Of a DNA stretch of 64,000 bases, positions 7,438 to 37,653 are shown piece after piece. The DNA comes from Umezawaea endophytica. GTDB lineage: Bacteria > Actinomycetota > Actinomycetes > Mycobacteriales > Pseudonocardiaceae. The stretch spans positions 266,434-330,433 of the forward strand of contig NZ_JANYMP010000006.1 of the NCBI RefSeq assembly GCF_025061645.1, read 5' to 3'. The number at the start of each line of letters is the position of its first letter. The first letter of the stretch is position 1. A program made the position numbers and the translations under genes. Under the pieces are notes generated by a model. It did not search any database, was not told the origin of the DNA, and saw nothing but the letters and a program-made list of their open reading frames with translations.

Positions 7438-7551
7438 GGCCGATTTGACTTGGGGCCCCTAGATTTGCCCCTTCGCCGGGCAATAAGGGCGGAGGGTGAA
7501 GCTGCCGCCCGGCGCAAGTTTAAGGGGCAAATCCCCCAAGTAAAATCGGCC
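7438..7551 (+). repeat. Covarying hairpin element, copy A
   Basis: 114-bp element starting GGCCGATTTGACTTGGGG and ending CCCCAAGTAAAATCGGCC: 18-nt arms pairing except one conserved G-A mismatch. Inside are a CCCCTA bulge, a 12-bp stem (GATTTGCCCCTT with its exact complement), a CAAGTTT linker on the 3' side, an 8-bp stem (CGCCGGGC/GCCCGGCG), a 6-nt bulge AATAAG and a short apical hairpin with loop motif GGGTGAAG. It lies 27 bp after the Lon-domain gene. See copies at 20621, 32937 and 37543. Confidence 0.9.
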
Positions 7552-8279
7552 ACGGTTGGGTTGGCGGCGTGGCGTTGGGTGCGTGGTGGGGTGGGTGAGG
7601 GAAGGCAGTTGGGGCGGGGTTCTGACTGCTGGTTAGGGTCGTTTTTGTAGGTCTTCCGGGTTGAGCGAGACAGGTCCCTGGGAGGCATCGGCGGGCGGGG
7701 TACGCCCGAAGCATCGATGGTGTGCGGCGTGTTTGCTCCCGCTTCACACCTCCTTGCGCTGAACCACACCCGCAGCATGCGCGTCCTGCCGCGCCCACAT
7801 CACCTCACTTACCGCATCACCCTGCTCCACACCCGCATGACCTTGCCGCCCATCACCTTGCTCGCTCCACGCTGGCGTCCCATACGTCCCGCCACGCCCT
7901 CCGCACCTCTGCCCCAGCCGCTCCAACCCGCCCGTTCGCCCTCCACCGCCCTACCCCTGCCTGCCCACCGCTTGCCCTCTTTGCCTTGCCCCTGCCCTGC
8001 CTCGCCTTCTCTGCCCCACCTCGCCCTACCTGGCCTTTCTCCCTCTACCTGGCCTTCCCCCTCCCCTCGACCTCCCCCACCTGGCCTTTCTCCCTCCTTC
8101 CTCCCTCCTTCCTCCCTCCTTCCTCCCTCCTTCCTCCCTCCTTCCTCCCTCCTTCCTCCCTCCTTCCTCCCTCCTTCCTCCGCCTTCCCTCCCCCTCTCC
8201 TCCGCCTTCCCCAACCCTCCAGCACACACCCCCACGCCCCCGCACACCACCGGAACCTTCCACCGATTGCCCCATTGCC
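7552..8279. other. Non-coding region with a long polypyrimidine tract
   Basis: No supported gene. From about 7895 to 8235 the plus strand is almost entirely C and T. Open frames here are compositional (proline/serine on plus, glycine/arginine on minus) and have no domain or convincing start. The core is the 11-bp tandem repeat at 8098-8180. Such homopurine-homopyrimidine DNA can form triplexes or, on the G-rich strand, quadruplexes. Confidence 0.7.
8098..8180. repeat. 11-bp tandem repeat TTCCTCCCTCC, about 7.5 copies
   Basis: TT dinucleotides recur at 8098, 8109, 8120, 8131, 8142, 8153, 8164 and 8175, exactly 11 bp apart, with CCTCCCTCC between. The minus strand is GGAGGGAGGAA repeated. The array sits about 170 bp upstream of the MFS gene at 8353. 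Confidence 0.95.
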
Positions 8280-8296
8280 GGATTGTTCAACAATCC
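8280..8296. promoter_or_regulatory. Perfect 17-bp palindrome upstream of MFS-DUF1445 operon
   Basis: GGATTGTTCAACAATCC is a perfect inverted repeat around a central C, 57 bp before the MFS start. The core TTGTT-N-AACAA resembles GntR/FadR-type operators. No regulator gene is adjacent, so the binding protein is unknown; the GntR at 997-1626 is one candidate. Confidence 0.65.
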
Positions 8297-8352
8297 CCTA
8301 GTGTGTCCCACAGCACAACCATCCACGCTCACCACCACGCTGCGAGGTGCCC

Positions 8353-9600
8353 ATGAGCACGACCCCCGTTACCCAGACAACCTCCGAGGGCTGGTTCAGG
8401 TCGCTCGGTCAGCGCGGCAAGCGTGCCTTCGTCGGTGCGTTCGGCGGCTACGGTCTCGATTCGTACGACTACTGGATCCTGCCGTTGAGCCTCGTGGCGA
8501 TCACGTCGTTCTTCGGCATCTCCAAGGGGCAGGCCGGGTTGCTCAACACGGCCACGCTCGTCCTGTCCGCGCTCGGCGGGGCGGTGGCCGGGGTGTTGGC
8601 GGATCGGATCGGGCGCGTCAAGACGTTGTTGATCACGGTGATCACGTACGCGGTGTTCACGGTTCTGTGCGGGTTCGCGACGAGTTACGAGATGTTGTTG
8701 GTGTTCCGCGGGTTGCAGGGGCTTGGATTTGGTGGGGAGTGGGCGGCTGGGGCGATTCTGGTCGCGGAGTACTCGAAGCCGGAGTATCGCGGGCGGGCCG
8801 TGGCGTTCATCCAGAGTGCGTGGGCCGTGGGGTGGGGGCTTGCGGTTCTGGTCTACACGTTGGTGTTCTCGTTCGTGAGCGCGGACATGGCGTGGCGGGT
8901 GATGTTCTGGACCGGGGCGCTGCCCGCGGTGTTGATCCTCTACATCCGACGGACGGTGCAGGACGCGCCGGGAACCGTTGAGCAGCGGGAGAAGAGCAGT
9001 CGGGGGTTCTCCGCGATCTTCAAGGGCGGGCTGGGGCGGACGACGTTCTTCGCGGCACTGCTGGCCACCGGGGTCCAGGGTGGGTACTACACGTTGGCGA
9101 CCTGGCTGCCGACGTACCTGAAGACCGAGCGCGGGCTGACGGTCATCAACTCGACGGGCTACTACGCGTTCCTGATCTCCGGCGCGTTCATCGGGTACGT
9201 GTGCGGCGGGTTCATCACGGATCGCTTGGGGCGCAAGAAGACCTTCGCGCTGTTCGCCGTCCTGTCGGCGATCCTGATCATGCTCTACACGCAGATCCCC
9301 GTCGGGGCGAACACCGTCGTGCTGTTCCTCGGGTTCCCGTTGGGCTTCTGCGCCTCGGCGATCTTCAGCGGGTTCGGGTCGTTCCTCGCGGAGCTGTACC
9401 CGACGGACGTGCGCGGCACGGGGCAGGGCTTCACGTACAACTTCGGGCGTGCCGTTGGGGCGTTGTTCCCGGCGGGGGTCGGGTTCATGGCCGAGAGCAT
9501 GGGTGTGGGTGGGGCGATGGTGTTCGGGGCCGCGGCGTACGGGATCGCCGTGCTGGCGCTGCTCGGGCTGCCGGAGACGGTGGGACGTGAGCTGACGTGA
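8353..9600 (+). CDS. MFS transporter (sialate/aromatic-acid:H+ symporter-like)
   Basis: 415-residue integral membrane transporter with about 12 helices. Signature loops are [46 protein letters not shown] and, in the second half, [17 protein letters not shown] and [27 protein letters not shown]. These place it near NanT-like and aromatic-acid symporters. ATG at 8353 is preferred over the in-frame GTG at 8347, which would fall inside the ribosome binding site GAGGTG. Its stop overlaps the next start (GTGA), so the transporter is coupled to a DUF1445 enzyme and likely imports its substrate. Controlled, by position, through the palindrome at 8280-8296. Confidence 0.9.
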
Positions 9601-10352
9601 CACCGGACGAGGTTCGGGCCCGCGGCTGCGGGCCCACCTCGGGTCTGGCGCCGGGGTTCGCGCAGGCGAACCTGATCGCCGTGCCCGAGGACTGGGCGTA
9701 CGACGTGCTGCTGTTCACGCAGCGGAACCCCAAGCCGTGCCCGGTGCTGGACGTGACGGACGCGGGCGGCCACCGCACGGTCCTGGCGCCGGACGCGGAC
9801 CTGCGCACCGCGATCCCGCGCTACCGGGTGTGGCGGGACGGGGAACTGGTCGACGAACCCGGTGACGCGACGCCGTTCTGGCGCGACGACCTGGTGTCGT
9901 TCCTGATCGGGTGCAGCTTCACGTTCGAGGGCGCGCTCGTCGAGGCGGGCGTGCCGCTGCGGCACGTCGACCAGGAGCGGAACGTGTCGATGTTCGTGAC
10001 GAACCGCGAATGCCGGGCCGCGGGGCGGATGCACGGGCCGATGGTGGTGTCGCAGCGCTGGATCCCGCACGCACTGGTGGACACCGCTCGGCGGGTGAGC
10101 GGTCTGATGCCCGCGGTGCACGGGGCTCCGGTGCACGTGGGTGATCCGGCGGAACTCGGCATCGCCGACCTGTCCGCGCCGGACTTCGGGGAGGCGGTCG
10201 TGCCCGAGGAGGGTGACGTGCCGGTGTTCTGGGCGTGCGGGGTGACGCCGCAGGCGGCGCTGATGGCGTCGAAGCCGCCGTTCGCGATCACCCACGCGCC
10301 CGGCCACATGTTCGTCACGGACGTGCCGGACTCGACCTACCGGGTGGGCTGA
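9597..10352 (+). CDS. DUF1445 (YcsI-family) putative hydro-lyase
   Basis: 251 residues matching the DUF1445/YcsI family. Typical family landmarks are [100 protein letters not shown] and [33 protein letters not shown]. Family members often sit with 5-oxoproline or allophanate-hydrolase-like genes and are annotated as hydro-lyases. The reaction here is not established. The GTG start overlaps the transporter stop, indicating a two-gene operon for uptake and conversion of one compound. Confidence 0.9.
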
Positions 10353-10435
10353 CCAGCCCGTTTTGTCCGACTGGGGTGGGAACGTCCCACCTGGACCACC
10401 GGTACCGGGTGGTCCGAAAGCCCGCCTGAGACGAA

Positions 10436-10456
10436 TAAGGCAAGAAGGTTGCCTAA
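10436..10456. promoter_or_regulatory. Operator-like inverted repeat upstream of first chitosanase
   Basis: AGGCAA-gaagg-TTGCCT (10438-10454) inside TAAGGCAA...TTGCCTAA. The half-site GGTTGCCTAAT recurs upstream of the second chitosanase. Actinobacterial GH46 genes are known to be controlled through palindromic promoter operators by ROK-family CsnR; identity with that site is inference. Confidence 0.55.
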
Positions 10457-10578
10457 TCGCGATCCAGTGGTTTAGCGTGACCGCCATCACCCCCGGTCCC
10501 TGCCGGGTAGCTGACGGAAGACCGCAGACACCAGCCGCCGCAGCCGTGTGTCCCATCCCCTGTTTCGCGGAGGTTCCC

Positions 10579-11415
10579 GTGTTCATCTCAGGCAGGCTCC
10601 TGCGCCTGGCCGCGGTCACGACGATGTCGATCGCGCTCGTCTCGACGGCCACCGGCCCGGCGGCGCTCGCGAAGCCCATGGCCGCGGACGGCGTCACGGC
10701 GGCGGTCGACCTGACCGACGCCGCGAAGAAGGAGATCGCGATGAAGCTGGTCTCCAGCGCCGAGAACTCGTCGCTGGACTGGAAGGCGCAGTACAGCTAC
10801 ATCGAGGACATCGACGACGGCCGCGGCTACACGGCGGGCATCATCGGGTTCTGCTCCGGAACGCACGACATGCTCGAACTCGTGACCGAGTACACCAAGC
10901 GGTCGCCCAACAACATCCTGAAGAAGTACCTGCCCGCGCTGCGGAACGTGGACGGTTCGGACTCGCACGCCGGGCTGGACCCCAACTACACCAAGGACTG
11001 GAAGACCGCCGCGAAGGACCAGGTCTTCAAGGACTCGCAGAACTTCGAGCGGGACCGGGTGTATTTCAACCCGGCCGTGAACCAGGGCAAGTCGGACGGC
11101 GTCCGGACGCTGGGGCAGTTCATCTACTACGACGCGATCGTGATGCACGGCGACGGTGACGACAGCACCAGCTTCCGCAACATCCGCAAGCGGGCGCTGA
11201 CCAAGGCCAAGCCGCCGTCGCAGGGCGGCAACGAGACCACCTGGCTGCACGCGTTCCTGGACGCTCGCGTCTGGGCCATGAAGCAGGAGGAAGCGCACTC
11301 CGACACCTCACGGGTGGACACGGCCCAGCGGGTGTTCCTGAACGCCGGGAACCTGGACCTGAACACCCCGTTGAAGTGGAAGGTCTACGGCGAGAGCTTC
11401 TCGATCAACTCCTGA
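10579..11415 (+). CDS. Secreted chitosanase, glycoside hydrolase family 46 (copy 1)
   Basis: Endo-acting hydrolase of chitosan, exported by an N-terminal signal peptide (residues 1 to about 28: RLLRLAAVTTMSIALVSTATGPAALA). 278 residues. The GH46 catalytic glutamate is in SSAENSSLDWKAQY and the aspartate in YIEDIDDGRGYTAGIIGFCSGTHDM. Conserved YYDAIVMHG and ARVWAMKQEEAHSDTSRVDTAQRVFL follow. GTG at 10579 has GCGGAGG upstream; an in-frame extension back to 10363 crosses the promoter motif and lacks signal-peptide character. Followed by a terminator and a close paralogue, so the pair are separate transcription units. Confidence 0.93.
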   Translation: MFISGRLLRLAAVTTMSIALVSTATGPAALAKPMAADGVTAAVDLTDAAKKEIAMKLVSSAENSSLDWKAQYSYIEDIDDGRGYTAGIIGFCSGTHDMLELVTEYTKRSPNNILKKYLPALRNVDGSDSHAGLDPNYTKDWKTAAKDQVFKDSQNFERDRVYFNPAVNQGKSDGVRTLGQFIYYDAIVMHGDGDDSTSFRNIRKRALTKAKPPSQGGNETTWLHAFLDARVWAMKQEEAHSDTSRVDTAQRVFLNAGNLDLNTPLKWKVYGESFSINS

Positions 11416-11428
11416 TCCGCGCCACGGG

Positions 11429-11466
11429 ACGGGCCCTGTCGACCACGGTCGGCGGGGCCCGTTTTC
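11429..11466 (+). terminator. Intrinsic terminator after chitosanase copy 1
   Basis: Stem ACGGGCCC / GGGCCCGT with an inner GACC/GGTC hairpin, followed by TTTTCTG. It separates the two chitosanase transcripts. Confidence 0.8.
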
Positions 11467-11533
11467 TGTCCTGAGTAGACCGATCGATTTGTGGAAACCG
11501 TTGCCGGTAAACATGTTTTGCCGACGTTGTTGA

Positions 11534-11554
11534 TAGGGAAGGAAGGTTGCCTAA
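11534..11554. promoter_or_regulatory. Operator-like repeat upstream of second chitosanase
   Basis: TAGGGAA-ggaagg-TTGCCTAA: same right half-site as at 10436-10456, left arm with one mismatch and a spacer one base longer. It lies 76 bp before the GTG of copy 2; the first site lies 123 bp before copy 1. Confidence 0.5.
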
Positions 11555-11629
11555 TTGCGCGGGCCGGGGTTACGGTGGCCGCCGCACATCCGCCGCCGTG
11601 CTCCACTCCCTTGCTCCACGGAGGTATGC

Positions 11630-12463
11630 GTGTTGAAATCAGGCAGGTTCCTGCGCTTGGCCGTCGTCGCCGCCGCGTCCGTCGCGCTGGTGTCCGGCGG
11701 TGCCGGAACGTCCTCCGCGTGGCCGATGGCCGCGGACGGGGTCCGGGCTCAGGCCGTCGACCTGGATTCCCCGGCGAAGAAGGAGATCGCCATGCAGCTC
11801 GTGTCCAGCGCGGAGAACTCGTCGCTGGACTGGAAGGCGCAGTACGGGTACATCGAGGACATCGGTGACGGTCGCGGGTACACCGGCGGGATCATCGGGT
11901 TCTGCTCCGGGACGCACGACATGCTCGAACTGGTGGAGGAGTACGCGCGCCGGGCGCCGGGGAACGTGCTGGAGAAGTACCTGCCCGCGCTGAGGGAAGT
12001 CGACGGGTCGGATTCGCACGACGGCTTGGATCCGGGGTTCACCGGGGACTGGGCCGCCGCTGCCGGGGACCCCGTCTTCCAGGGGGCGCAGAACGACGAG
12101 CGGGATCGGGTCTACTTCACCCCGGCCGTGGACCAGGGCAAGTCCGACGGCGTCCGGACGCTGGGGCAGTTCATCTACTACGACGCCATCGTGATGCACG
12201 GCGGCGGGAACGACTCGACCAGCTTCGGCGGGATCCGGAACCGCGCCCTGTCGGTCGCCCGGCCCCCGGCCCAGGGCGGCGACGAAGCGGCTTGGCTGCA
12301 CGCGTTCCTGGACGCTCGCGTCTGGGCCATGAAGCAGGAAGAGGCGCACTCCGACACCTCACGGGTCGACACGGCCCAGCGGGTGTTCCTGAACGCCGGG
12401 AACTTCGGGCTGGACACCCCACTGGCGTGGCAGGTCTACGGGGACAGCTACCGGATCGGGTGA
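11630..12463 (+). CDS. Secreted chitosanase, glycoside hydrolase family 46 (copy 2)
   Basis: 277 residues, strongly similar to the upstream chitosanase over the mature domain (same SSAENSSLDWKAQY and GYIEDIGDGRGYTGGIIGFCSGTHDM catalytic segments, same AHSDTSRVDTAQRVFLNAGN tail). The signal peptide differs in sequence (LRLAVVAAASVALVSGGAGTSSA). GTG at 11630 follows GGAGGTATGC. The mature domain has more acidic and fewer lysine substitutions than copy 1 (for example EEYARRAPGNVLEKY against TEYTKRSPNNILKKY), suggesting divergence in charge after tandem duplication. Ends at a strong hairpin. Confidence 0.93.
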   Translation: MLKSGRFLRLAVVAAASVALVSGGAGTSSAWPMAADGVRAQAVDLDSPAKKEIAMQLVSSAENSSLDWKAQYGYIEDIGDGRGYTGGIIGFCSGTHDMLELVEEYARRAPGNVLEKYLPALREVDGSDSHDGLDPGFTGDWAAAAGDPVFQGAQNDERDRVYFTPAVDQGKSDGVRTLGQFIYYDAIVMHGGGNDSTSFGGIRNRALSVARPPAQGGDEAAWLHAFLDARVWAMKQEEAHSDTSRVDTAQRVFLNAGNFGLDTPLAWQVYGDSYRIG

Positions 12464-12476
12464 GACCAGCGGAACG

Positions 12477-12508
12477 CGAAGGGGGCCACCACCCGGCGGC
12501 CCCCTTCG
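12477..12508. terminator. Bidirectional hairpin terminator, chitosanase 2 / DUF2567
   Basis: Perfect 11-bp stem CGAAGGGGGCC / GGCCCCCTTCG with 10-nt loop between convergent stop codons at 12463 and 12525. Confidence 0.8.
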
Positions 12509-12524
12509 GCGTTCGTGCGCGGGT

Positions 12525-13124
12525 CTAGCCCAAGCGGCGGCCCAGGTCGTCCATGCCGTTCCACGCCGCGAGGCAGCCGTAGGCCAGTGCGGTGGCCATC
12601 GGCCAGGCGACCACGCCCCACCAGGTTTGCAGGGCCGGGGCGGTCATGATGGTGTCGCCGACGGCGAACTCGCCGGTCGGGGCGTAGTGGTCGGCCGCCA
12701 TGCCCACGCCGGTCTTCTGGCCCAGGTACGCCGCCAGTGCCGACCCCAGCACCGCCGCGAGCATGATGACCGGGCCTCGGCGTTCCCGCAGCAGCCACAC
12801 GGCTATGCCGGTCAGCAGACCCGCGCCCAGGCCGAGCAAAACGAAGACCATCAGCGCGTCCAGGGCGTGGTAGCTCTCGCCGCCCACCGGGATCAACTGG
12901 GCGCCGTCCTGGACGACCTTGTTCTGCCCCGGCGCCAGGCGGGACCACAGCCAGCCGAGCGGCAGTGCCAGCGCCGACAGGGCACCCGCCAGGCAGACGG
13001 CCGGGAGGAGGTCGCGCTTGACGACCACCCGCGGGCGTCGTGGGTGGAAGTCGAGCACCCACTGCGGCAGCACTGGTGGGATGCGCACCGGCACAGCCCT
13101 GTCGTCCACCGGTTGTTCCACCAC
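12525..13124 (-). CDS. DUF2567 membrane protein of the biotin cluster
   Basis: 199 residues with an N-terminal cytoplasmic arm and four hydrophobic segments (about 40-58, 88-110, 117-132, 165-187). Between the first two is an extracellular-type loop RLAPGQNKVVQDGAQLIPVGGESYHALDAL. It resembles actinobacterial DUF2567 proteins; the M. tuberculosis homologue Rv1591 likewise follows bioB and Rv1590. No function is established. Same strand as bsaP, 36 bp downstream of it. Start is GTG-GTG; either codon could be used. Confidence 0.8.
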   Translation of the reverse strand: MVEQPVDDRAVPVRIPPVLPQWVLDFHPRRPRVVVKRDLLPAVCLAGALSALALPLGWLWSRLAPGQNKVVQDGAQLIPVGGESYHALDALMVFVLLGLGAGLLTGIAVWLLRERRGPVIMLAAVLGSALAAYLGQKTGVGMAADHYAPTGEFAVGDTIMTAPALQTWWGVVAWPMATALAYGCLAAWNGMDDLGRRLG

Positions 13125-13160
13125 CCGCGACCTCCTCGTGAACCGAAGCTGACCCGGAGA

Positions 13161-13346
13161 TTACCGCGCCGACGTGATCTCGCCGTGACGACTGCACCTG
13201 GCCGTCCAGCCCGCGGGGGTGACCTGGACGACCATCCGGCGGGCGCACTCGGCGCAGTAGCGCGGCGGGTCGATGACCGAGAGGCGCTTCTGGCACGCCG
13301 CGTGGTCGCCGTCCGCCTGCTTCCCGCAGTAGGAGCAGTACGCCAT
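13161..13346 (-). CDS. bsaP: Biotin synthase auxiliary protein BsaP-like, small Cys-rich protein
   Basis: 61-residue protein with two CxxC pairs (CSYC near residues 4-7 and CAEC near 31-34) plus single cysteines at HAAC and ARCSRHGE, a zinc-ribbon or Fe-S pattern. Its ATG overlaps the bioB stop by one base (TGATG), so it is translationally coupled to bioB. This is the position and size of Rv1590/BsaP, reported to support BioB iron-sulfur cluster function in mycobacteria. Identification rests on cysteine layout, length and synteny. Confidence 0.82.
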   Translation of the reverse strand: MAYCSYCGKQADGDHAACQKRLSVIDPPRYCAECARRMVVQVTPAGWTARCSRHGEITSAR

Positions 13347-14374: not shown

Positions 14375-14453
14375 GACTTCTCCTTCGGCAGACGGGCGTT
14401 CGAGCAAGTGTGCCGCACGGCACGGATCGAGTCCGCGCGACGAACGTCACCCC

Positions 14454-15170: not shown

Positions 15171-15246
15171 GGGGAACCACCCTACGCAGAAGCGGAGGGC
15201 ACTACCGGTTGACGGGTGTCCCGTGGCCGGGCCGGCGCCCGGATCG

Positions 15247-16500: not shown

Positions 16501-17716
<1,216 letters not shown>

Positions 17717-20620: not shown

Positions 20621-20735
20621 GGCCGATTTTACTTGGGGGATTTGCCCCTTAAACTTGCGTCGGACGGCGGCTTCACCTTCCCGCCGTTTTGGTCCGACGA
20701 AGGGGCAAATCTAGGGGCCCCAAGTCAAATCGGCC
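20621..20735 (-). repeat. Covarying hairpin element, copy B
   Basis: 115-bp element in reverse orientation with the same 18-nt ends as the copy at 7438. The 12-bp stem equals copy A, but the 8-bp stem is CGTCGGAC/GTCCGACG, two compensated changes from copy A. The bulge is CAAAAC and the apical stem GGCGG/CCGCC with loop GAAGGTGAAG. It sits exactly between two convergent stop codons (20582 and 20743). Confidence 0.9.
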
Positions 20736-23581: not shown

Positions 23582-23650
23582 GGTGACGGCCCTTCGGGTC
23601 CCGGGGACCCGGCGTGGGCCCGCGCTTGCCCGGACGCGCTGCGCGCCGGG

Positions 23651-23735
23651 CCAGGTCTTCACCGTGGGCACCCCACCGCGGAGGAGGGTTGCCGGCCAGC
23701 TAGCACGGGCTTCGCGCTGGCACTCATGACCTTTC
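23651..23735 (-). ncRNA. SAM-IV riboswitch
   Basis: The minus-strand leader reads GGTCATGAGTGCCAGCG, then a short variable hairpin, then GCTGGCCGGCAACCCTCC, GCGGTGGGGTGCCC and GGTGAAGACC. This is the conserved order of the SAM-I/SAM-IV core with the SAM-IV type 5' GGTCATGAGTGCCAGC segment. P1 is GGTC (23731-23728) with GACC (23657-23654). The 3' edge is about 70 bp before the aminotransferase ATG. A short open frame beginning at the ATGAG inside the aptamer is a by-product of the structure. Confidence 0.9.
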
Positions 23736-27110: not shown

Positions 27111-27123
27111 TCGGCTCCGCACG

Positions 27124-28301: not shown

Positions 28302-28332
28302 CACGCTCTCCTCCCGACGGTCGTTGACAAAG

Positions 28333-29353: not shown

Positions 29354-29399
29354 CCGGTCGGGTTGGGTGTTGGGGAGGACGCCCTGGTCGAGCGCTTCC

Positions 29400-29439
29400 A
29401 CGACGAAGGGCGCCTGCCGGAGCAGGCGCCCTTCGTCGT
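29400..29439. terminator. Bidirectional hairpin terminator, hydrolase / ileS
   Basis: Perfect 18-bp stem (29400-29417 with 29422-29439) and a CGGA tetraloop, between convergent stops at 29353 and 29449. Confidence 0.9.
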
Positions 29440-29448
29440 GCGAGCGGA

Positions 29449-32400
29449 TCAGCTCCGGGTGACGTGCACCCGGACCTTCACGCCATCGCCGACGACGCCG
29501 TCGGAACCCTCGGCGACCTCGCCGTGGGCGACCGTGTCGGCCAGGGTCTCGCCCGCGAGGAACGCCTCGTGCGTGCGGACCGCGCCGACGACCGACTCCG
29601 GCACCTGCAAGGTCAGCACGATCCGGTCCGACACGTCCAGGTCGGCGTCCTTGCGGGCCTGCTGGACCACGCGGACCAGGTCGCGCGCGACGCCCTCGTC
29701 GGCCAGCTCGGGGCTGACGACGGTGTCGAGCACGACCAGGCCACCGCCGCCCGGCAGCGCGGCCGTGGCGGCCGGGTCGGTGGCGACGAGCCGCTGCTCG
29801 TACTCCTCCGGGAACAGCTCGATGCCCGCGGCGACGATCGCGCCGGACTCGGTCGTCGTCCAGTCACCGGCCTTCACGGCCTTGATCACCGTCTGCACCT
29901 CGCGCCCGATCCGGGGACCGGCCGCGCGGGCGTTGACCGCGAGCTGGAAGTGGCCGTGCGCGTCGACGTCCGTGGTCAGCTCGACCGCCTTGACATTGAC
30001 CTCGTCGCGCAGGATGCCCGCGAACGGCTCCAGCGACGCGACCTCGTCGGCGGCGATGACCAGCTTCGCCAGCGGCAGCCGGACGCGCAGCTTGTTCGCC
30101 TTCCGCAGCGACGACGCCGTGGACGCGATCTGCCGCACCCGGTCCATCGCCGTGACCAGCGCGGCGTCGGCGGGCAGGTCGGCCGCGACCGGGAAGTCGG
30201 CCAGGTGCACCGAACGGCCACCGGTCAGCCCCCGCCAGACGACCTCGGTCGTCAACGGCAGCAGCGGCGCGGCGACCCGGCTCACGACCTCCAGCACGGT
30301 GTGCAGGGTGTCGATCGCGTCGGCGTCACCGGCCCAGAAGCGGTCGCGCGACCGGCGCACGTACCAGTTGGTCAGCACCTCCAGGAACTCGCGGATCTGC
30401 GCGCACGACCCGGAGATGTCGTACACGTCCATCGCGGCCTGCACGTCCCGCACGAGGTCGTGCGTCTTCGCCAGGACGTACCGGTCGAGCACGTTCTGGG
30501 AGTCCGTGCGCGAGGTGCCCTCGCGGCCCGCGGCGTTGGAGTACAGCGCCAGGAAGTACCAGGAGTTCCACAGCGGCAGCACGGCCTGGCGGACGGCGTC
30601 GCGGATGCCCCGCTCCGTCACCACCAGGTCGCCGCCGCGGAGGATCGGCGAGGACATCAGGAACCAGCGCATGGCGTCCGAGCCGTCGCGGTCGAACACC
30701 TCGTTGACGTCCGGGTAGTTCTTGCGCGACTTGGACATCTTCTGCCCGTCGTCGCCCAGCACGATGCCGTGCGCCAGCACGTTCACGAACGCGGGCCGGT
30801 CGAACAGCGCCGTGGCCAGCACGTGCATCGTGTAGAACCAGCCGCGCGTCTGGCCGTTGTACTCGACGATGAAGTCACCGGGGAAGTGGTCGTCGAACCA
30901 CTCGGCGTTCTCGAACGGGTAGTGGACCTGGGCGAACGACATCGAGCCGGACTCGAACCAGCAGTCCAGCACCTCGGGCACCCGGCGCATGGTCGACTTC
31001 CCGGACGGGTCGTCCGGGTTCGGGCGGGTCAGCAGGTCGACGTGCGGGCGGTGCAGGTCCGTCGGACGCGTGCCGAAGTCGCGCTCCAGCTCGTCCAGCG
31101 AGCCGTAGACGTCGACACGCGGGAACTCCGGGTCGTCCGACACCCACACGGGCAGCGGCGAGCCCCAGAACCGGTTGCGCGAGATGTTCCAGTCGCGCGC
31201 GTTCTCCAGCCACTTGCCGAACTGGCCGTCCTTGATGTGCTCGGGCACCCAGTTGATCTGCTGGTTGACCTCGACCATCCGGTCCTTGAACCGGGACACG
31301 GCGACGAACCACGCCGACACGGCCCGCTGGATCAGCGGGTTGTCGCAGCGCCAGCAGTGCGGGTACGGGTGGTCGTAGGTCTCGTGGCGCAGCAGCAGAC
31401 CGGCGGCCTTGAGGTCGCGGATGATCGCCTTGTTCGCCTCGAACACGTGCACGCCCTGGTACGGCGGCACCTCGGCGGTGAACTCGCCGTTGGGGCCGAC
31501 CGGGACGACGACCTCGATGCCCGCGGCGTCCGTGACGACCTTGTCGTCCTCACCGAACGCGGGGGCGATGTGCACGATGCCCGTGCCGTCCTCGGTGGTG
31601 ACGTAGTCCGCGGCGAGCACCTGGTGGGCGTTCTCGCGGCCGACGAAGAAGTCGAACGGCGGCGCGTACTTGCGGCCGACCAGGTCCGCGCCCTTGATCC
31701 GGGCGACGACCGGCGGCTCCTCCCCCAGCTCACGGGCGTACGCGGGGACGCGGGCCTCGGCGAGGAGGTAGCGCTCGCCGTTCGCCTCGACGGTCACGTA
31801 GTCGACGTCCGGGTGCACGGCCGCGGCGAGGTTGCTCGGCAACGTCCACGGGGTCGTCGTCCAGATGAGGGCCAGCTCGCCCGTCTCCAGGCGCAGGCCG
31901 ACCGTGACGGCCGGGTCCTGGCGGTCGCGGTAGACGTCGTCCATCTTGGTCTCGGTGTTGGACAGCGGCGTCTCGCAGCGCCAGCAGTACCAGAGCACGC
32001 GGAAACCCTCGTAGATCAGCCCCTTGTCGAACAGCGACTTGAAGGCCCACATGACGGACTCCATGTAGTCCAGGTCGAGGGTCTTGTAGTCGTTGTCGAA
32101 GTCGACCCAGCGGGCCTGGCGGGTCACGTAGTCGCGCCACTGGTCGGCGTACTGGAGGACCGAGGTGCGGCAGGCGTCGTTGAACTTCTCGATGCCCATG
32201 GCCTCGATCTCGCTCTTGTGCGAGATGCCGAGCTGCTTCTCCGCCTCCACCTCGGCCGGGAGGCCGTGGGTGTCCCAGCCGAAGCGGCGCTCGACGTGCT
32301 TGCCGCGCATCGTCTGGTAGCGGGGGACGACGTCCTTCACGTAACCCGTGAGGAGGTGGCCGTAGTGCGGGAGGCCGTTGGCGAAGGGAGGGCCGTCGTA

Positions 32401-32559
32401 GAAGACGAACTCGTTCCCGCCGTTGTCGCCCGCGGGGCGGTGGTCGACGCTGGCCTGGAAGGTGCCGTCGGACTTCCAGTAGGCGAGAACGTCCTGTTCC
32501 ACCTGGGGGAAGGAAGGCTGGGACGGGACTGAACCCTCGCCCGCCTTGGGGTACGCCAT
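29449..32559 (-). CDS. ileS: Isoleucyl-tRNA synthetase, eukaryote-like (IleS2) type
   Basis: 1036 residues. Charges tRNA-Ile and edits valine. Class I signatures: the HIGH variant in [13 protein letters not shown] (HYGH, near residue 55) and KMSKS in [16 protein letters not shown]. The CP1 editing region includes [13 protein letters not shown] and [15 protein letters not shown]. Tryptophan/cysteine-rich zinc-like pairs [10 protein letters not shown] and [10 protein letters not shown] are visible. Length and HYGH place it with the long IleS2 form, associated in other bacteria with low mupirocin sensitivity. ATG at 32559 has GAGGAG upstream; the frame extends further only through the T-box. Confidence 0.97.
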
Positions 32560-32584
32560 GGTGCTGCTCCTCGCGCGTCGATCC

Positions 32585-32752
32585 GGCTCACGGGGACGAC
32601 GCACCTGCTCGGCGCACCGCGGTACCACCCCGCTTGCCGACGCTCGCGCGACGGCCACTCTGTGACGGCTGTGACGGGCCGATCCCGTCCGGTTCTACTG
32701 AGGCTGGTGGGCCCGTTCTTCCGGAAGCTCCCCGGTGATGGCCGGATCAGTG
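32585..32752 (-). ncRNA. Ultrashort T-box leader of ileS
   Basis: The minus strand carries GATCCGGCCATCACCGG with the isoleucine specifier ATC (32739-32737), a GAAGAACGG segment, CAGTAGAACCGGACGGG linker features, then the T-box bulge sequence GGGTGGTACCGCGG (32630-32617) and the closing GTCGTCCCCG. This is the compact actinobacterial ileS T-box that controls translation by binding uncharged tRNA-Ile. Boundaries are approximate. Confidence 0.88.
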
Positions 32753-32936
32753 CCTGGGTTGAGTTTAACGCTTGGGGGGAAGGGGGTTGTTCCCGGATGG
32801 GGGGAGGTGGATTTTGGTGCTGGGGGTTGTGGGGTGGTCACGTGGGGGTGGCTGCGGGTTCCAGCGTGGTCGGCGGGTGGATCGCTGCGGTTCCGGCGTG
32901 GTGTGGCGGGTGGGTGGTCACGTTCCAGCGTGGTGT

Positions 32937-33050
32937 GGCCGATTTGACTTGGGGCCCCTAGATTCGACCCTTCGCCGGGCACTTAGGGCGGAGGGTGAAG
33001 CTGCCGCCCGGCGAAAGTTTAAGGGTCGAATCCCCCAAGTAAAATCGGCC
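32937..33050 (+). repeat. Covarying hairpin element, copy C
   Basis: 114 bp with the same 18-nt ends, CCCCTA bulge and 8-bp stem as copy A, but the 12-bp stem is GATTCGACCCTT with partner AAGGGTCGAATC: two substitutions, each compensated. The 6-nt bulge is ACTTAG and the linker AAAGTTT. It lies between the ileS leader and the 3' end of the 177-residue membrane protein gene. Confidence 0.9.
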
Positions 33051-33436
33051 ACGGTTCTAGGGCGGTGGCTTCGTTTTTGCTGGTCAAGTGGCTTTCATGC
33101 GCGTGGGTGGGCGCGGTGGGCAGGCACCGTTGGCGGCGCCACTACCGGCCAGTGCAGTTAGTGGGCTAGCCAGCTAGTGGGCTAGCGCTTCCAGCGGCTC
33201 AGCCGCCAACGTGAGCAGCCCTTCCAGCGGCCCATACCGCCAAGCCCATCTGTGCGGTCGGTGCTTCCGGCGGTCGGTCCCACCAAAGCCATCTGCGTGA
33301 TCAGTCCCCACCAGCGCCTGGCGTGTCCTCGCTGGCTGTCTCCCCGGCCCCTCCCGCCCCCTGTCACCTTTGCCACCCGATCGAGTGAACCGTTTGGCGT
33401 CGGGGCTCGTGTTCTGGGTGGAGGTGAGAGTGGGTG
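33051..33436. other. Non-coding region
   Basis: No supported gene. It contains short repeats of GCTAGC/GGGCTAGCCAGCTAGTGG near 33160-33186 and CCAGCGG-type repeats to 33240. The G/T-rich stretch at 32760-32936 ahead of copy C is also without a gene. Confidence 0.6.
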
Positions 33437-33970
33437 CTACGAGCGGCGTTGGGTGCGGTGGGCTTCGGCGAGGGTGTTGTCCGGGGTGCAGAGGGCGCAC
33501 GGGGTGAAGCCGAGTTGTCTTGCCTCGTTGATTGGGAGTGGCAGGGTTGGGCGGTTGGCCAGCCACTGGCAGGTTTCGAGGTGGTACCTGGGGCGCTCGT
33601 CGAGTACTCGTACCTCGGTGGTGAGGTCGGTGACTGTGAGCAGGTCGGCCGCGTCGGTGTCTTCCTCGAGCGGCTCGGTGCCCTGATCGGGCGAAATGGT
33701 GGGGGCGGTGGGGGCCCGGTCCTGCCGGTCTTGATCATCAGCGCTAATCTTTTGATCAATGACAGCGGTACTGGCAGCCTTCGGGGTGGACGCGGTGTCG
33801 TGGGGCGAGCGGCGGCGGAGCCACCAGTCGAGTACCAGGACGCACGCGGCCGCTCCGCTCGCACCCACGGACAACCACGCCCAGACGTGCTGGGCGGTGG
33901 TCAGCGCGGGGACGAGCAACCCGAGGGCTGCCAGTACCAGCAGTAGAACTGTGTAGAGCACGATCCGCAC
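33437..33970 (-). CDS. Two-helix membrane protein with C-terminal His/Cys metal-binding-like motif
   Basis: 177 residues. Hydrophobic helices at about 3-24 and 28-49, a short basic stretch (DWWLRRRSPHDT), then a polar, acidic linker and a C-terminal motif YHLETCQWLANRPTLPLPINEARQLGFTPCALC. The His-x3-Cys...Cys-x2-Cys spacing resembles Ada-like metal-binding domains and similar small domains at the C-terminus of actinobacterial membrane proteins. Function unknown. It lies downstream of wag31 on the same strand, 33 bp after it. Start GTG at 33970. Confidence 0.75.
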   Translation of the reverse strand: MRIVLYTVLLLVLAALGLLVPALTTAQHVWAWLSVGASGAAACVLVLDWWLRRRSPHDTASTPKAASTAVIDQKISADDQDRQDRAPTAPTISPDQGTEPLEEDTDAADLLTVTDLTTEVRVLDERPRYHLETCQWLANRPTLPLPINEARQLGFTPCALCTPDNTLAEAHRTQRRS

Positions 33971-34003
33971 CCTAGTTCAGCGCGGTACGCCTTTTGTGGA
34001 TGA

Positions 34004-34828
34004 TCAGCCCGCCTCGGCGCGCGCGCCGAACGAGTAGCCCTGCTGGCCACCGGCGCGACCGTCGGACGGCGCGGCGGGGCCGCGGTCCTGGAGGTCGCGC
34101 AGAGAGGATTCCAGCATGGTCTTGAGCCTCGTGCGGTACTCGCGCTCGAACGTCTGCAACTTGTCGATCTGCTTCTCCAGCGCGTTCTTCTCCGACGTGA
34201 TGTTGCCCATCACCTCGGCGTGCTTGCGCTGGGCGTCCCGGTCGAGCGCGCTGGCCTTCTCACGGGCCTGCCGCTCCAGCGTCTCCGAACGCGTACGGGC
34301 GTCGTTCAACATGGTCTCGGCACGCGTGCGCGCCTCGTTGACCATGGTGTCCGCCTTGGCCCGCGCCTCGGACAGCAACTGCTCGGACTTGGTCCGGGCC
34401 TCCGACAGCATGCCGTCGGCTTCGGCCTTCGCCTCGCCGGTCAGCCTGTCGGCCATCTCCTGGGCCAGCCCGAGGACCTTGGCCGCCTGGACGTGGTGGT
34501 CACCACCGCCGCCAGGGGAGGTCTGCTCCATGACCGAGGGCGGGGGCACCGGCGCAAGGCGACGGGGCTCCTCCACGACACGGCTGGGGCCGACGGGACC
34601 GGCCGAGACCTTGGCACGGGCGTCATCGAGGTCGGCACGCGCAGTCTCGACCTGCTGGTCGAGCTGTTCGACCTGCTGGCGCAGCTCGTTGTTCTCCTCG
34701 ATCAGGCGGGCGAGCTCGCCCTCAACCAGGTCGAGGAACGCGTCCACCTCGTCCTCGTTGTAGCCCCGCTTGCCAATCGGTGGCTTGCTGAATGCAACAT
34801 TGTGCACGTCAGCGGGGGTCAACGGCAT
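34004..34828 (-). CDS. wag31: DivIVA/Wag31 polar growth protein
   Basis: 274-residue cytoplasmic coiled-coil protein that marks cell poles and directs apical growth. The N-terminal DivIVA membrane-binding domain is clear ([39 protein letters not shown], 1-39), followed by a coiled coil, a Pro-rich linker (about 80-103) and a long second coiled coil (about 112-245) with [40 protein letters not shown] repeats. Follows the usual place downstream of sepF-yggT. Confidence 0.96.
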
Positions 34829-34874
34829 CAGATCACCTCACGCACTCCTGGGCTGTTGGCATCCCTGGTCCCCG

Positions 34875-35159
34875 TCACCTGGGATCTGCCGTTCGCATCA
34901 GAATGATAACGAGCAGCAACAGCACAATAATGGACAAGTCCAGCCCGATGCCCCCGATCCGCACCGTCGGTATGACCCGGCGGAACAAGCGGATCGGTGG
35001 ATCGGTCACTGTGTACACGGTCTCCAGGGCTACCGCGACCCCTCCGGCCGGACGCCACTCCCTGGCGAACGACCGGACGAGCTCGACCACGACACGTGCC
35101 GTGAGCAGCAGCCAGAACGAGAACAGCAGGTAGTACAGCACGAACAGGAGGACATCCAC
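34875..35159 (-). CDS. YggT-family membrane protein
   Basis: 94 residues with two membrane helices (about 3-27 and 72-90) flanking the conserved loop VYTVTDPPIRLFRRVIPTVRIGGIGLDLS. YggT proteins sit between sepF and divIVA in many Gram-positives; a role in membrane-associated division or ion homeostasis has been proposed but not settled. GTG start. 19 bp after sepF. Confidence 0.92.
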   Translation of the reverse strand: MDVLLFVLYYLLFSFWLLLTARVVVELVRSFAREWRPAGGVAVALETVYTVTDPPIRLFRRVIPTVRIGGIGLDLSIIVLLLLVIILMRTADPR

Positions 35160-35178
35160 CCCTCAACTGTGCCACCAC

Positions 35179-35823
35179 TCAGGTGAGACTTCCGAACCCA
35201 CCCTCGGCAAGACGCCTGCGGTCCTCCGCGGTGACGTCGATGTTGGGCGGTGAGAGAAGGAACACCTTGTTCGTGACCTTGTCGATCGAGCCCCTCAGCG
35301 CGAAGGCCAGCCCGGCCGCGAAGTCCACGAGCCTCTTCGCGTCCGCGTCGTCCATCTCGGTGAGGTTCATGATCACCGGGGTGCCGTCGCGGTAGTGCTC
35401 ACCGATGGTCCGCGCCTCGTTGTAGCTGCGCGGATTCAACGTCGTGATGCGCCCCAAGGGGTGGCCCGTCTGCTCTGCCGCAGGCCTGGGCCTGCTGATC
35501 GGCTCGCGCACCGGCTCGACAGCCAGTGCACCGTGGACGGGTGCGTCGGTGTTCCAGCTACGGCGAGTGGTCCGCGACCGGGCCTCCGGCTCGAAGTCGT
35601 CGGACTCGTCGAGCTCCGACCGGTACTCCGACCTCGTCCCGCTGAACACGCGACGACGCCCTCCACGCTCAGGGTACGGGTCGTACTCGTCGGCCTCGGC
35701 GCCGTACTCGGACCGGTAGTCGGCTTGGTAGCGGCCGCGCTCGTCCTCGTACGCCCCAGGGTCGTCCGCGTACTCGGCGGGAACCATCCCGAAGTAGGCC
35801 TTCAGCTTGTGAAATCCACTCAT
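35179..35823 (-). CDS. sepF: Cell division protein SepF
   Basis: Membrane anchor that binds and bundles FtsZ, essential in actinobacteria lacking FtsA. 214 residues: an N-terminal amphipathic helix ([14 protein letters not shown]), a long acidic/arginine-rich linker with many Tyr ([32 protein letters not shown]), and the C-terminal SepF domain (about 120-205: [70 protein letters not shown]). ATG at 35823 follows GGAGGAAGGG. Confidence 0.96.
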
Positions 35824-35893
35824 TGCCAGGGGACCCTTCCTCCGCGATTCCCACCACCAAGGACGGTGCGGCCACCCCTGAGGTTCCATACAG

Positions 35894-36601
35894 TTACGGC
35901 GAGGCTAGCCTTCGGCCTCCCAGCAGCGCCGTTCCGACACGCACGCAGGTACTTCCGTGCGCGATCGCATCTTCCAGGTCCCCGCTCATGCCCGCTGAGA
36001 CAACAGTCGCAGCGGGATGATCACGGCGCAAGCGGGATACCTCATCCGCGAGCACGGAAAACGCGGTCGAAGGGTTCATCTGGATCGGTGCGACGGCCAT
36101 CACACCCCGCAGAAAAAGTTCACCCGATCCGGCGACGTGATCGGCGAGGTCCCGGACGTCCGGGAGCGGGCAGCCGCCCCTGGCGGGGTCGCCGTCGATG
36201 CTGACCTGGATGAGGACGTCCAGCGGCCTGCCCCGCTGGGCCGCCGCCTTGGCCAGCGCGTCGGCCAGCCGGACGGAGTCGAGGGTGTCGACGCGGTCGG
36301 CCCAGGAGACGACCGAGCGGGCCTTGTTGCGCTGGACGTTGCCGACCATGTGCCAGGTGGGTGCCACGCCGGGGCGCAGGGCGCCGAAGTCGACGACCTT
36401 CGCCGACGCCTCCTGGTCGCGGTTCTCGGCGAAGGCGGAGAGGCCCAGTTCGCTCAGCAGGGCCACGTCGGAGGCCGGGAAGGTCTTGGTGACCGCCAGC
36501 AGGTCCACTTCGGCTGGTGACCGGTTTGCGGCCTCGCACGCGGCATCGATGCGGGCACGGACGTCGGCGAGGTTCGCCGCCAGGTCGTCACGACGGGTCA
36601 A
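35894..36601 (-). CDS. yggS: YggS-family PLP homeostasis protein
   Basis: 235-residue single-domain TIM-barrel protein that binds PLP but has no known catalytic role; it buffers PLP and amino-acid pools. The PLP lysine is in [18 protein letters not shown]. Other landmarks: [43 protein letters not shown], and [28 protein letters not shown]. The TTG start at 36601 overlaps the pgeF end by 14 bp. Usual position between pgeF and sepF. Confidence 0.93.
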
Positions 36602-37295
36602 CCCAGATCACCCCTCCCAGGCGGCCGGTGCCGGGCTCGCGGCGGTGGCTGAAGAGCGTGCGCTCCTCGAAGGTGCAGCGGGGGTCCACGCCGAGCTTGC
36701 CGATGCCGAGGGCGGCCAACTGGGCCCAGAGGCCTGCTCGGAGGTCCAGCGCGGGTTTGGCGGCGCGGGACTTGGAGGCGCTGCCGGGGAGGTGCTTCTC
36801 GACGTCGGCCATCATCGCGGCGGGGACCTCGTAGCACTTGCCGCAGACGGCTGGGCCCAGGAGGACTTCGATGTTCTCGGGTTTCGCGCCGAGGTCTGTC
36901 ATGGCTTTGACGGCGGCTGGGACCACGCCTACTCGGGCGCCTACTCGGCCTGCGTGTACTGCGCCGATGACGCCGGTGGTCGGGTCGCCTAGGAGGACGG
37001 GGACGCAGTCTGCCGTGAGGACTACCAGGGCGAGGTTGGGTTCGGCGGTTACCAGGGCGTCGGTGGCTTCGGCCGGGGAGTCCAGGGGGGCGGTGACGGT
37101 GGTGACCGTTCGGCCGTGGACCTGTTCCATCCAGACCAGGCGGGTGGGGTCGAGTCCTATGCCCTCGGCCAGGCGTTCGCGGTTGGCGGATACGGCGGTG
37201 GGGTCGTCGCCTACGTGGTCGCCGAGGTTGAAGGAGTCGTAGGGGGCGGTGGAGACGCCGCCTTCGCGGGTGGTCAGGACTCGACGGATGCGCAC
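36588..37295 (-). CDS. pgeF: Peptidoglycan editing factor PgeF / YfiH-family purine nucleoside phosphorylase
   Basis: 235 residues of the DUF152 laccase-like family. Zinc-site residues: His in WMEQVHGRTV, Cys in LTADCVPVLL and His in GAVHAGRVGARVG, the last differing from the commoner HAGWRG. GPAVCGKCYEVP is also conserved. Family members are reported both to edit peptidoglycan precursors and to phosphorolyse or deaminate purine nucleosides. First gene of the pgeF-yggS-sepF-yggT-wag31 run. GTG start at 37295. Confidence 0.92.
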   Translation of the reverse strand: MRIRRVLTTREGGVSTAPYDSFNLGDHVGDDPTAVSANRERLAEGIGLDPTRLVWMEQVHGRTVTTVTAPLDSPAEATDALVTAEPNLALVVLTADCVPVLLGDPTTGVIGAVHAGRVGARVGVVPAAVKAMTDLGAKPENIEVLLGPAVCGKCYEVPAAMMADVEKHLPGSASKSRAAKPALDLRAGLWAQLAALGIGKLGVDPRCTFEERTLFSHRREPGTGRLGGVIWVDPS

Positions 37296-37401
37296 GGGGA
37301 CAGCTTTTCATGGGGTGGGGGGAGGGTGGGGGTGGGTTGGGTGGGTCCTGGGGGGTCCGGTGGGTGGGGTGGTGGGTCGAGTCGGTGGGTGGGTCCGGTG
37401 G

Positions 37402-37510
37402 GTAAGTGCGGGAGGTGGGTCCGGGGGGTAAGTGCGGGAGGGTGGGTCCCGGGGGTAAGTGCGGGAGGGTGGGGTGTCGGGGGTAAGTGCGGGAGGGTGG
37501 GGTGTCGGGG
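37402..37510. repeat. G-rich 26-28-bp tandem repeat, four copies
   Basis: GTAAGTGCGGGAG recurs at 37402, 37428, 37455 and 37483 with G-rich spacers (GTGGGTCCGGGG-like, then GTGGGGTGTCGGGG). The whole 37310-37540 stretch is G/T-rich with many GGG and GGGG runs, able to form quadruplexes. No gene is present in 37296-37780. Confidence 0.85.
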
Positions 37511-37542
37511 GTGGGGTGGATGTTTGGGGTGGTCCTGGGGGC

Positions 37543-37653
37543 GGCCGATTTGACTTGGGGCCCCTCTTTTTGGCGCTAGTCGGGCCAAAACGGCAGGTGG
37601 GAAGCTTGCCGCCCGACTGAGTTTAGCGCCAAAAACCCCAAGTAAAATCGGCC
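37543..37653 (+). repeat. Covarying hairpin element, copy D
   Basis: 111 bp, most diverged copy. The 18-nt ends are unchanged, the bulge is CCCCTC, the 12-bp stem is TTTTTGGCGCTA with exact partner TAGCGCCAAAAA (five compensated differences from copy A), the next stem is GTCGGGC/GCCCGAC, the bulge CAAAAC as in copy B, and the apical stem GGCA/TGCC with GGTGGGAAGCT loop. It lies between ftsZ and pgeF. Confidence 0.9.

What the first reader, a model, noticed from the sequence alone, without database searches (positions are those of the whole stretch)
7438..37653. Family of four intergenic elements with constant ends and covarying internal stems: candidate new structured RNA or mobile hairpin
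Copies at 7438-7551 (+), 20621-20735 (-), 32937-33050 (+) and 37543-37653 (+). All start GGCCGATTTGACTTGGGG and end CCCCAAGTAAAATCGGCC, keeping even the single G-A mismatch. The 12-bp stem is GATTTGCCCCTT in A and B, GATTCGACCCTT in C and TTTTTGGCGCTA in D; in each copy the 3' arm is its exact complement. The next stem is CGCCGGGC (A, C), CGTCGGAC (B) or GTCGGGC (D), again exactly matched. That gives about ten compensated double changes and no uncompensated one. Unpaired parts keep sequence: CCCCT[A/C], AGTT, CAAAAC in B and D, and GGTGAAG or GGGAAG in the apical loop. Conserved asymmetric loops plus covariation argue for selection on RNA folding rather than simple palindromic DNA. Alternatives are a MITE/REP-like element or a specialised terminator.
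Basis: seen in the sequence. Interest (0 to 1): 0.9.

Follow-up and report, generated by a model that had tools for sequence, protein, structure and literature searches.

The report
Mobile DNA hairpins with mutation halos
The four repeats are copies of a mobile, self-complementary DNA hairpin present more than 80 times in this soil bacterium's genome, and the genes around such hairpins have mutated on one strand far more than on the other, which is surprising for a bacterial repeat.

Summary
The family is larger: 83 full-length copies in the 11 Mb genome, none inside a called gene among 82 checked, with species-specific subfamilies in two congeners. "Structured RNA" is not supported: paired positions switch between Watson-Crick pairs, G.T mispairs are as rare as A.C (7 against 6 over two stems), neither strand is favoured, and Rfam has no match. 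Best reading: a REPIN/MITE-like mobile DNA hairpin. The Y1 transposase that defines REPINs is absent. In Kibdelosporangium the same hairpin brackets DUF222-HNH endonuclease genes; this genome has none.

Unexpected: coding sequence within about 1.5 kb of a hairpin shows strand-asymmetric substitution in the lineage that bears it, oriented with the hairpin (C>T 3.5-fold, C>G 2.1-fold; G>A and G>C not raised), decaying with distance. A prediction written beforehand held in a new region (9 copies, P 0.0003). Three biased islands lacking this family held a second hairpin family with a similar apex. I propose one-strand nicking at the hairpin, gap formation and error-prone filling; insertion into already skewed sites is not excluded. 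New variant of a known kind, with a possibly new mutagenic property.

The parts
7438..7551 (+). Hairpin copy A (family 1): ends GGCCGATTTGACTTGGGG / CCCCAAGTAAAATCGGCC, 114 nt
20621..20735 (-). Hairpin copy B, 115 nt, between two convergent gene ends; the unaligned interval there is 17 nt in G060 and 89 nt in G022. Halo weak (192 changes to G/T against 112 to C/A versus G022)
32937..33050 (+). Hairpin copy C, 114 nt; no hairpin at the site in G060, another family-1 hairpin in G022. Halo 127 against 64 versus G060, 101 against 80 versus G022
37543..37653 (+). Hairpin copy D, 111 nt
32834..32939 (+). Degenerate 32-bp G/T-rich tandem repeat (unit with GGTTCCAGCGTGGTGT) running up to copy C
37313..37518 (+). 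G/T-rich low-complexity stretch on the 5' side of copy D, GC skew up to 0.71
36043..39153 (+). Strand-asymmetric substitution halo around copy D (221 changes to G/T against 43 to C/A versus G022; both congeners have an opposite-facing family-2 hairpin about 0.3 kb away)
5938..9051 (+). Strand-asymmetric substitution halo around copy A (254 against 41 versus G022; both congeners have an opposite-facing family-2 hairpin about 0.2 kb away)

Best explanation
Shown: a repetitive DNA hairpin (about 110-150 bp) without a gene of its own in this genus, with fixed ends and an interchangeable middle, present in species-specific sets in intergenic DNA; of 68 copies with both neighbours called, 63 have at least one gene 3' end facing them. 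Shown: its arms are kept complementary by Watson-Crick rules, with no sign that RNA wobble pairing matters. Shown, in two regions compared: DNA around it carries a strand-asymmetric excess of substitutions, oriented with the hairpin, strongest next to it and fading over about 1-1.5 kb on both sides. Inferred: a trans-acting enzyme recognises the folded hairpin, probably at its conserved asymmetric apex, and nicks one strand. The nicked strand is cut back both ways, which leaves the hairpin's + strand single-stranded over about a kilobase. Its cytosines, and to a lesser degree adenines, are damaged or misread during gap filling, giving the halo. Fill-in across the hairpin copies one arm from the other, which gives compensated changes without intermediates. 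Occasionally the hairpin is pasted or converted into another intergenic site. The enzyme in this genus is unknown; an HNH nuclease like the DUF222-HNH proteins bracketed by the same hairpin in Kibdelosporangium is the best lead. My estimates: mobile DNA hairpin 0.9; complementarity kept at DNA level 0.8; halo real and oriented 0.9; hairpin causes halo 0.5; nick-and-gap mechanism 0.3.
For: Copies: 83 full-length; 76 distinct elements among 80 pattern matches in G022. Sites not shared. Divergent gene pairs avoided: 5 of 68; 0 of 82 inside a called gene (home-made caller). Wobble test. Halo: prediction written before the sequences were examined (note). The nine registered copies give mean oriented log2(toGT/toCA) 0.83, 6 of 9 above zero, P 0.0003 against places drawn anywhere in the region. 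Both regions together: 15 of 19 positive, mean 0.90, 0 of 100000 resamplings as high. With the second hairpin family taken into account: family 1 18 of 19 comparisons positive, mean 1.03, none below -1; family 2 9 of 11 positive, mean 0.95; 1463 random places sd 0.40, 2.3% beyond +-1. Polarised spectrum and distance decay. All codon positions raised, on either gene strand, the third most. HNH link.
Against: No enzyme was found: no Y1_Tnp in G000, G022 or G060; no DUF222 in G000, though G022 has six weak C-terminal matches; no gene family recurring beside the copies; no gene bracketed by an inverted pair within 5 kb among the 76 elements of the complete genome G022. Copies in large identical groups sit in flanks at least as skewed as singletons do, so the skew can be older than the present hairpin sequence. 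Hairpins recur at the same sites in congeners (4 of 6 against 0.49 expected for uniform placement), which fits insertion into pre-existing hot spots. In the new region two G022 hairpins first counted as unique gave -0.21 and -1.30. No neighbour-base preference points to a deaminase. The persistent G-A mismatch is not what arm-to-arm copying alone predicts.
Confidence: 0.5

Rival explanations
1. Same mobile DNA hairpin, but passive: it inserts, in a fixed orientation, into sites that already undergo strand-asymmetric mutation (for example R-loop-prone or persistently single-stranded intergenic DNA). The hairpin marks the halo and does not cause it.
For: Identical, presumably recent copies have flanks at least as skewed as singletons. 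Sites are reused by different hairpin families in different species. Strongly skewed stretches without a family-1 hairpin exist, and not every biased window was traced to a hairpin.
Against: All three biased islands without family 1 that I opened held another hairpin, and orientation followed in the further family-2 sites (6 of 8 comparisons positive). Substitution peaks beside the hairpin on both sides in polarised lineages. Young-looking copies can also arise by gene conversion between copies.
Confidence: 0.35
2. Structured non-coding RNA family under selection for RNA folding.
For: Strong folding and covariation; conserved bulge and apical sequences, which make the + strand distinct.
Against: G.T as rare as A.C; similarly few G-U pairs on both strands; no Rfam match; presence differs between congeners at the same loci; no gene family recurs beside the copies.
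Confidence: 0.06
3. Specialised transcription terminator spread as a repeat.
For: Many copies have a gene 3' end facing them; very stable hairpin.
Against: Only short T runs near the 3' side (such as ACGGTTTTAGGG). A pattern scan around the four window copies calls no terminator on the hairpin stem itself, and a separate strong one lies at 37765-37729 (-) beside copy D (the scan allows loops of 3-8 only). Distances to the nearest called gene run to over 1 kb. It does not explain the halo.
Confidence: 0.05
4. A classical MITE moved by a DDE transposase that recognises these ends.
For: Short, inverted ends, many copies; one family-2 insertion in G060 repeats TAG at both junctions.
Against: The end matches listed come as hairpin pairs, apart from a few degraded or contig-end ones (about 105 of 178 matches listed); in G022 all 80 matches were listed and none frames a gene within 5 kb. 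No constant target duplication seen by eye around 82 copies. In Kibdelosporangium each end of the gene-bearing unit is a complete hairpin, not a half.
Confidence: 0.06

Closest known systems
REPINs (REP doublets forming hairpins) with RAYT transposases
   Same: Extragenic hairpins, two invariant ends of 16 bp, variable middle with common compensatory changes, many copies (PMC3116915, abstract and passages).
   Different: No Y1 (RAYT) gene found in this genome or its two congeners; different end sequences; strand-asymmetric mutation halo; in another genus linked to DUF222-HNH genes instead.
MITEs
   Same: Short repeats with inverted ends and no gene of their own (recalled definition).
   Different: No autonomous parent with the same ends seen in this genus; no constant target duplication seen; self-complementary almost throughout, with covarying middle.
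DUF222-HNH (13E12 repeat family; REP13E12 of mycobacteria)
   Same: In Kibdelosporangium the same hairpin brackets such genes in inverted pairs. REP13E12/HNH endonuclease/DUF222 is listed among repetitive elements in mycobacteria in PMC10589994 (passages). That DUF222 proteins are the 13E12 family is recalled.
   Different: The window's genome has the hairpins without any DUF222 match. Whether mycobacterial REP13E12 has hairpins was not examined.
Integron attC sites (recalled)
   Same: Single-strand folded recombination sites whose structure is kept while sequence varies.
   Different: No attC boxes or integrase were looked for. Recalled comparison only.

Membership tests
REPIN / REP | Extragenic, high-copy, hairpin-forming unit with invariant ends | tested here: met
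REPIN / REP | RAYT (Y1_Tnp, PF01797) gene in the genome | tested here: not met
   0 matches in G000; 0 in each of G000, G022, G060 at E up to 1; control genomes rang in both calls
REPIN / REP | GTAG or CGTC tag at one end (from title and abstract start of PMC3733652) | tested here: not met
   by eye: ends GGCC, GGTC or GTTC, with GT before and AC after in most copies
MITE | Shares ends with an autonomous transposon of the same genome | tested here: not met
   none seen; G000 is a draft of 65 contigs, G022 is one contig
MITE | Constant target-site duplication | tested here: inconclusive
   none seen by eye in 82 family-1 copies; TAG repeated at one family-2 junction
Rfam structured RNA | Match to a curated family | tested here: not met
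Rfam structured RNA | Covariation with wobble-tolerant intermediates on one strand | tested here: not met
Rfam structured RNA | Transcript of defined strand | not testable with these tools
   no RNA-seq available
DUF222-HNH hairpin element | DUF222-HNH gene between inverted hairpins | tested here: not met
   met in G146 and G065, not in the window's genome
Intrinsic terminator | Stem followed at once by a T run | tested here: inconclusive

The most novel reading that the evidence does not exclude
A bacterial repeat that directs strand-specific hypermutation of its neighbourhood: two hairpin families with a similar apex act as landing sites for a nicking enzyme that repeatedly exposes one strand, remodelling the neighbouring genes' composition over about a kilobase each side, in the orientation of the hairpin.
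Probability: 0.4. Interest if true: 0.93.

Novelty: new variant of a known kind. Interest (0 to 1): 0.78.

Why it matters
If the hairpins cause the halo, a class of repeats usually treated as inert would be a directed local mutator that changes the ends of ordinary genes, and local GC-skew islands in GC-rich actinobacteria would have an explanation. It would also give the DUF222-HNH proteins, whose Pfam domain is still of unknown function, a testable substrate. Even if the hairpins only mark such sites, they locate a strand-asymmetric mutational process in a bacterial chromosome that can be tested by removing one hairpin.

Tried and rejected
RNA reading: rejected on the wobble test and Rfam. 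RAYT: searched, absent in the genus; Y1_Tnp does occur in G092 and G146, not pursued. A mobilising gene beside the copies: 209 proteins from 72 loci gave three clusters of three loci each, ordinary host genes by eye. Exact insertion borders: most sites could not be aligned to the base because intergenic DNA diverges. Target motif: TTCC[A/G]GCG[T/G]GG[T/G]GT and ACGGTT[C/T]TAGGG turned out to travel with the element (25 of 27 and 21 of 21). Mutation context: no clear neighbour preference. Distribution: 22-mer with up to 2 mismatches in 7 of 200 family genomes, own included, 3 of 46 genera; exact 19-mer in 0 of the 395 other genomes of a phylum sample, which held no further genome of the own family; viral contigs 0. 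Solved structures: no convincing relative of the DUF222-HNH protein (one hit, E 0.008). Literature: I found no paper describing these repeats or such halos in searches (listings seen; passages read only of PMC10589994 and PMC3116915); most subscription journals and bioRxiv are not held.

Limits and errors. The home-made gene caller misses strongly skewed genes (it missed the likely gene 6731-7411 left of copy A), so its neighbour counts are rough. One search used wrong minus-strand coordinates. One search, the only genome-contig scan, had an N too many and so missed the common form. One search timed out. Searches treated sites as hairpin-free that hold family 2; the test was redone with family 2 included, after seeing the first result. 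One search dropped hairpins with fewer than 800 aligned columns and set aside 27 comparisons in which the other genome has a hairpin near the site; of these, 11 of 17 (family 1) and 7 of 10 (family 2) were positive, range -1.30 to 2.60. Its 19 family-1 comparisons hold 17 distinct elements, with three orthologous pairs; its 11 family-2 comparisons hold 10, with one orthologous pair. The family-2 orientation rule was set from three islands; without those three, 8 comparisons remain, 6 positive. One search left out columns near two hairpins of opposite orientation.
Full report
WHAT IS THERE. The four elements are at the stated positions with the stated arms, bulge and apex. They fold far better than shuffles as RNA on their + strand; copy A's - strand folds almost as well. 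A covariance model from 11 copies finds 83 full-length copies in the window's 11.02 Mb genome (149 rows because both strands score), plus degraded or gapped ones (for example one interrupted by Ns). I extracted 82 with flanks (one search printed 83 rows, one copy in both orientations). They make 43 distinct sequences, with identical groups of 13, 5, 4, 4 and 4. Five close inverted pairs occur 74-145 bp apart.

WHERE IT SITS. With a home-made gene caller, 0 of 82 copies lie inside a called gene. Of 68 with both neighbours called, 26 have both neighbours on the hairpin's minus strand, 22 lie between convergent genes, 15 have both neighbours on the plus strand and 5 lie between divergent genes. 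The caller misses strongly skewed genes, so these counts are rough. Flanks are G/T-rich on the hairpin + strand: GC skew 0.46 in the first 50 nt on the left and 0.33 on the right (83 rows). Of the 82 copies, 70 have left skew above 0.2 and none below -0.2. Flanks resemble each other within subfamilies and fade gradually.

MOBILITY. Two congeners (G022, G060; longest matching blocks 86-90% identical) are syntenic with the window. They carry their own subfamilies (76 distinct elements among 80 pattern matches in G022). Copy B's unaligned interval is 17 nt in G060 and 89 nt in G022; copy C's site has no hairpin in G060 and another family-1 hairpin in G022. Exact borders could rarely be set. The 22-mer end, with up to 2 mismatches, occurs in 7 of 200 genomes of the family, in 3 of 46 genera. 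G146 is taken to be Kibdelosporangium aridum DSM 43828 because a hairpin-bearing contig has the same length, 717,233 bp.

RNA OR DNA. Across 71 distinct elements from at least three genera the 18 outer positions give 1208 Watson-Crick, 3 G.T, 4 A.C and 63 other cells (60 of these at the mismatch position). In the first ten pairs of the middle stem of 57 distinct elements of the genus the counts are 564, 4, 2 and 0. Several positions carry three different Watson-Crick pairs. Folded as RNA, G-U pairs make up 1.8% (+) and 2.2% (-) in G000, 3.4 and 4.6% in G022, 2.4 and 5.3% in G060, 7.1 and 8.5% in other genera. G.T wobbles would be harmless steps for an RNA of one strand, yet they are as rare as A.C. 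This points to maintenance at DNA level: selection on a DNA hairpin, or arm-to-arm copying. No Rfam family matches the elements.

THE ENZYME QUESTION. Y1_Tnp is absent from G000, G022 and G060. Among the 76 elements of the complete genome G022 no inverted pair within 5 kb brackets a gene. In G146, 11 hairpins of the same family were seen. Ten form five inverted pairs around DUF222-HNH sequences: three around a full-length gene, one around a gene in two pieces, one around two copies with a run of Ns between them. The eleventh lies about 0.2 kb from a broken fragment with weak similarity. Pfam confirms DUF222 for the one protein scanned; its HNH match is just below Pfam's cut-off. A 75% identical gene in G065 is bracketed by a co-diverged hairpin. 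Of 30 fetched loci with matches to that protein, 13 show inverted repeats of about 100-380 nt on either side of the gene, and in one more (L082) the hairpin pair lies beyond the stretch compared. Nine of these repeats are not long hairpins (one arm of L070 was not retrieved). G092 also has two lone hairpins without a DUF222 match beside them. The window's genome has no DUF222 match; G022 has six weak ones covering the C-terminal part. So this protein is unlikely to be the mobiliser here.

THE HALO. Neighbouring coding DNA differs from congeners' orthologues in a strand-biased way. I wrote down a prediction for a new 200-kb region before examining it. The nine registered copies gave 1.82, 0.88, 0.00, -0.81, 1.77, 1.06, 2.59, 0.16 and -0.04: mean 0.83, P 0.0003 against places drawn anywhere in the region. 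With roles swapped, two G022 hairpins first counted as unique gave -0.21 and -1.30. Both regions together: 15 of 19 positive, mean 0.90. Three lineage-specific biased islands without this family each held an insertion with another hairpin. This family 2 has a constant core such as GTCAAGGCGGGAAAGATGCCTTGAC or GTCAAGACGGTGAAGCTGTCTTGAC and variable, mutually complementary outer arms. A 21-mer from its end is found 1, 86 and 129 times in G000, G022 and G060 and not in four genomes of other genera. With both families placed, and only sites where the other genome has no hairpin, family 1 gives 18 of 19 positive (mean 1.03, none below -1) and family 2 gives 9 of 11 (mean 0.95); 1463 random places have sd 0.40. 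The negative copy and two of the three near-zero copies of the new region have an opposite-facing family-2 hairpin within 0.4 kb; the third, and the -1.30 case, face a hairpin in the other genome. This explanation was made afterwards. Not every biased window was traced to a hairpin.

SPECTRUM AND SHAPE. Polarised with three genomes, near (up to 1.5 kb) against far (over 3 kb) rates on the hairpin + strand are C>T 3.5, C>G 2.1, A>T 2.1, G>T 1.8, A>G 1.6, C>A 1.5, A>C 1.4, T>A 1.4, T>G 1.3, G>A 1.0, T>C 0.88, G>C 0.74. In the G022 and G060 lineages changes to G/T fall from about 70 per kb beside the hairpin to 18-28 at 1-1.5 kb, while changes to C/A stay at 7-21. In the G000 lineage, where ancestor and descendant cannot be fully told apart, the excess is broader (50-98 against 14-33). 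All three codon positions are raised, the third most, whichever strand the gene is on, as a mutational cause predicts. There is no clear neighbour-base preference. Inside the hairpins, rare types differ from the nearest common type by 37 changes to G/T and 19 to C/A. In other genera the hairpin flanks have more T than A in 17 of 17 hairpins, while GC skew is near zero or mixed.

HOW IT MAY WORK. Same-sign asymmetry on both sides fits exposure of one strand across the hairpin, for example a nick on the other strand with gap widening, rather than two-ended resection, which would give opposite signs. Fill-in copying one arm from the other would give compensated changes without intermediates. This is inference. 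Against it: copies in identical groups sit in skew at least as strong as singletons (0.50 and 0.35 against 0.42 and 0.25, left and right), and congeners reuse the same sites (4 of 6, expected 0.49, P 0.0006 for uniform placement; placement limited to intergenic DNA would expect more). So hairpins may enter sites already being mutated; or copies may be homogenised by conversion after arrival. Removing or adding a hairpin would decide.

CLASS. It works like a REPIN (form, copy number, compensatory changes; PMC3116915), but fails the RAYT test and the tag test, so I do not file it as one.

Noticed in passing
window 23617-23731 (-): SAM-IV riboswitch, also present in the syntenic stretches of both congeners.
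   Followed up: no
window 54375-54484 (-): mraW RNA motif.
   Followed up: no
window 7994-8247: Pyrimidine-rich tandem repeats (CCTTCCTCCCT about 10.8 copies) about 0.5 kb to the right of copy A, with skew opposite to the hairpin's.
   Followed up: partly
window 37729-37765 (-): Strong terminator-like hairpin with a T run, about 75 nt from copy D and separate from it.
   Followed up: no
L057, L060, L065, L069, L070, L074, L076, L077, L083: DUF222-HNH-like genes of the Kibdelosporangium group lie between 100-210 nt inverted repeats that are not long hairpins; part of them carry a GCTGGAACGTAACCAAC-like motif.
   Followed up: partly
L164:3152-3312: Actinocrispum wychmicini carries a family-1-like hairpin with fully paired ends just after a gene that looks like a polyketide synthase.
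   Followed up: no
L145:3087-3149, L146:8309-8365, L181:2117-2171 and others: Second hairpin family with the opposite design: constant core, variable but complementary outer arms; 86 and 129 end matches in G022 and G060, 1 in G000.
   Followed up: partly
G060:C4:281909-282250 (in L151): Family-2 insertion at a TAG stop, apparently shared by two convergent genes, with TAG repeated at both junctions; in the adjacent coding DNA many C's of the congeners read G or T.
   Followed up: partly
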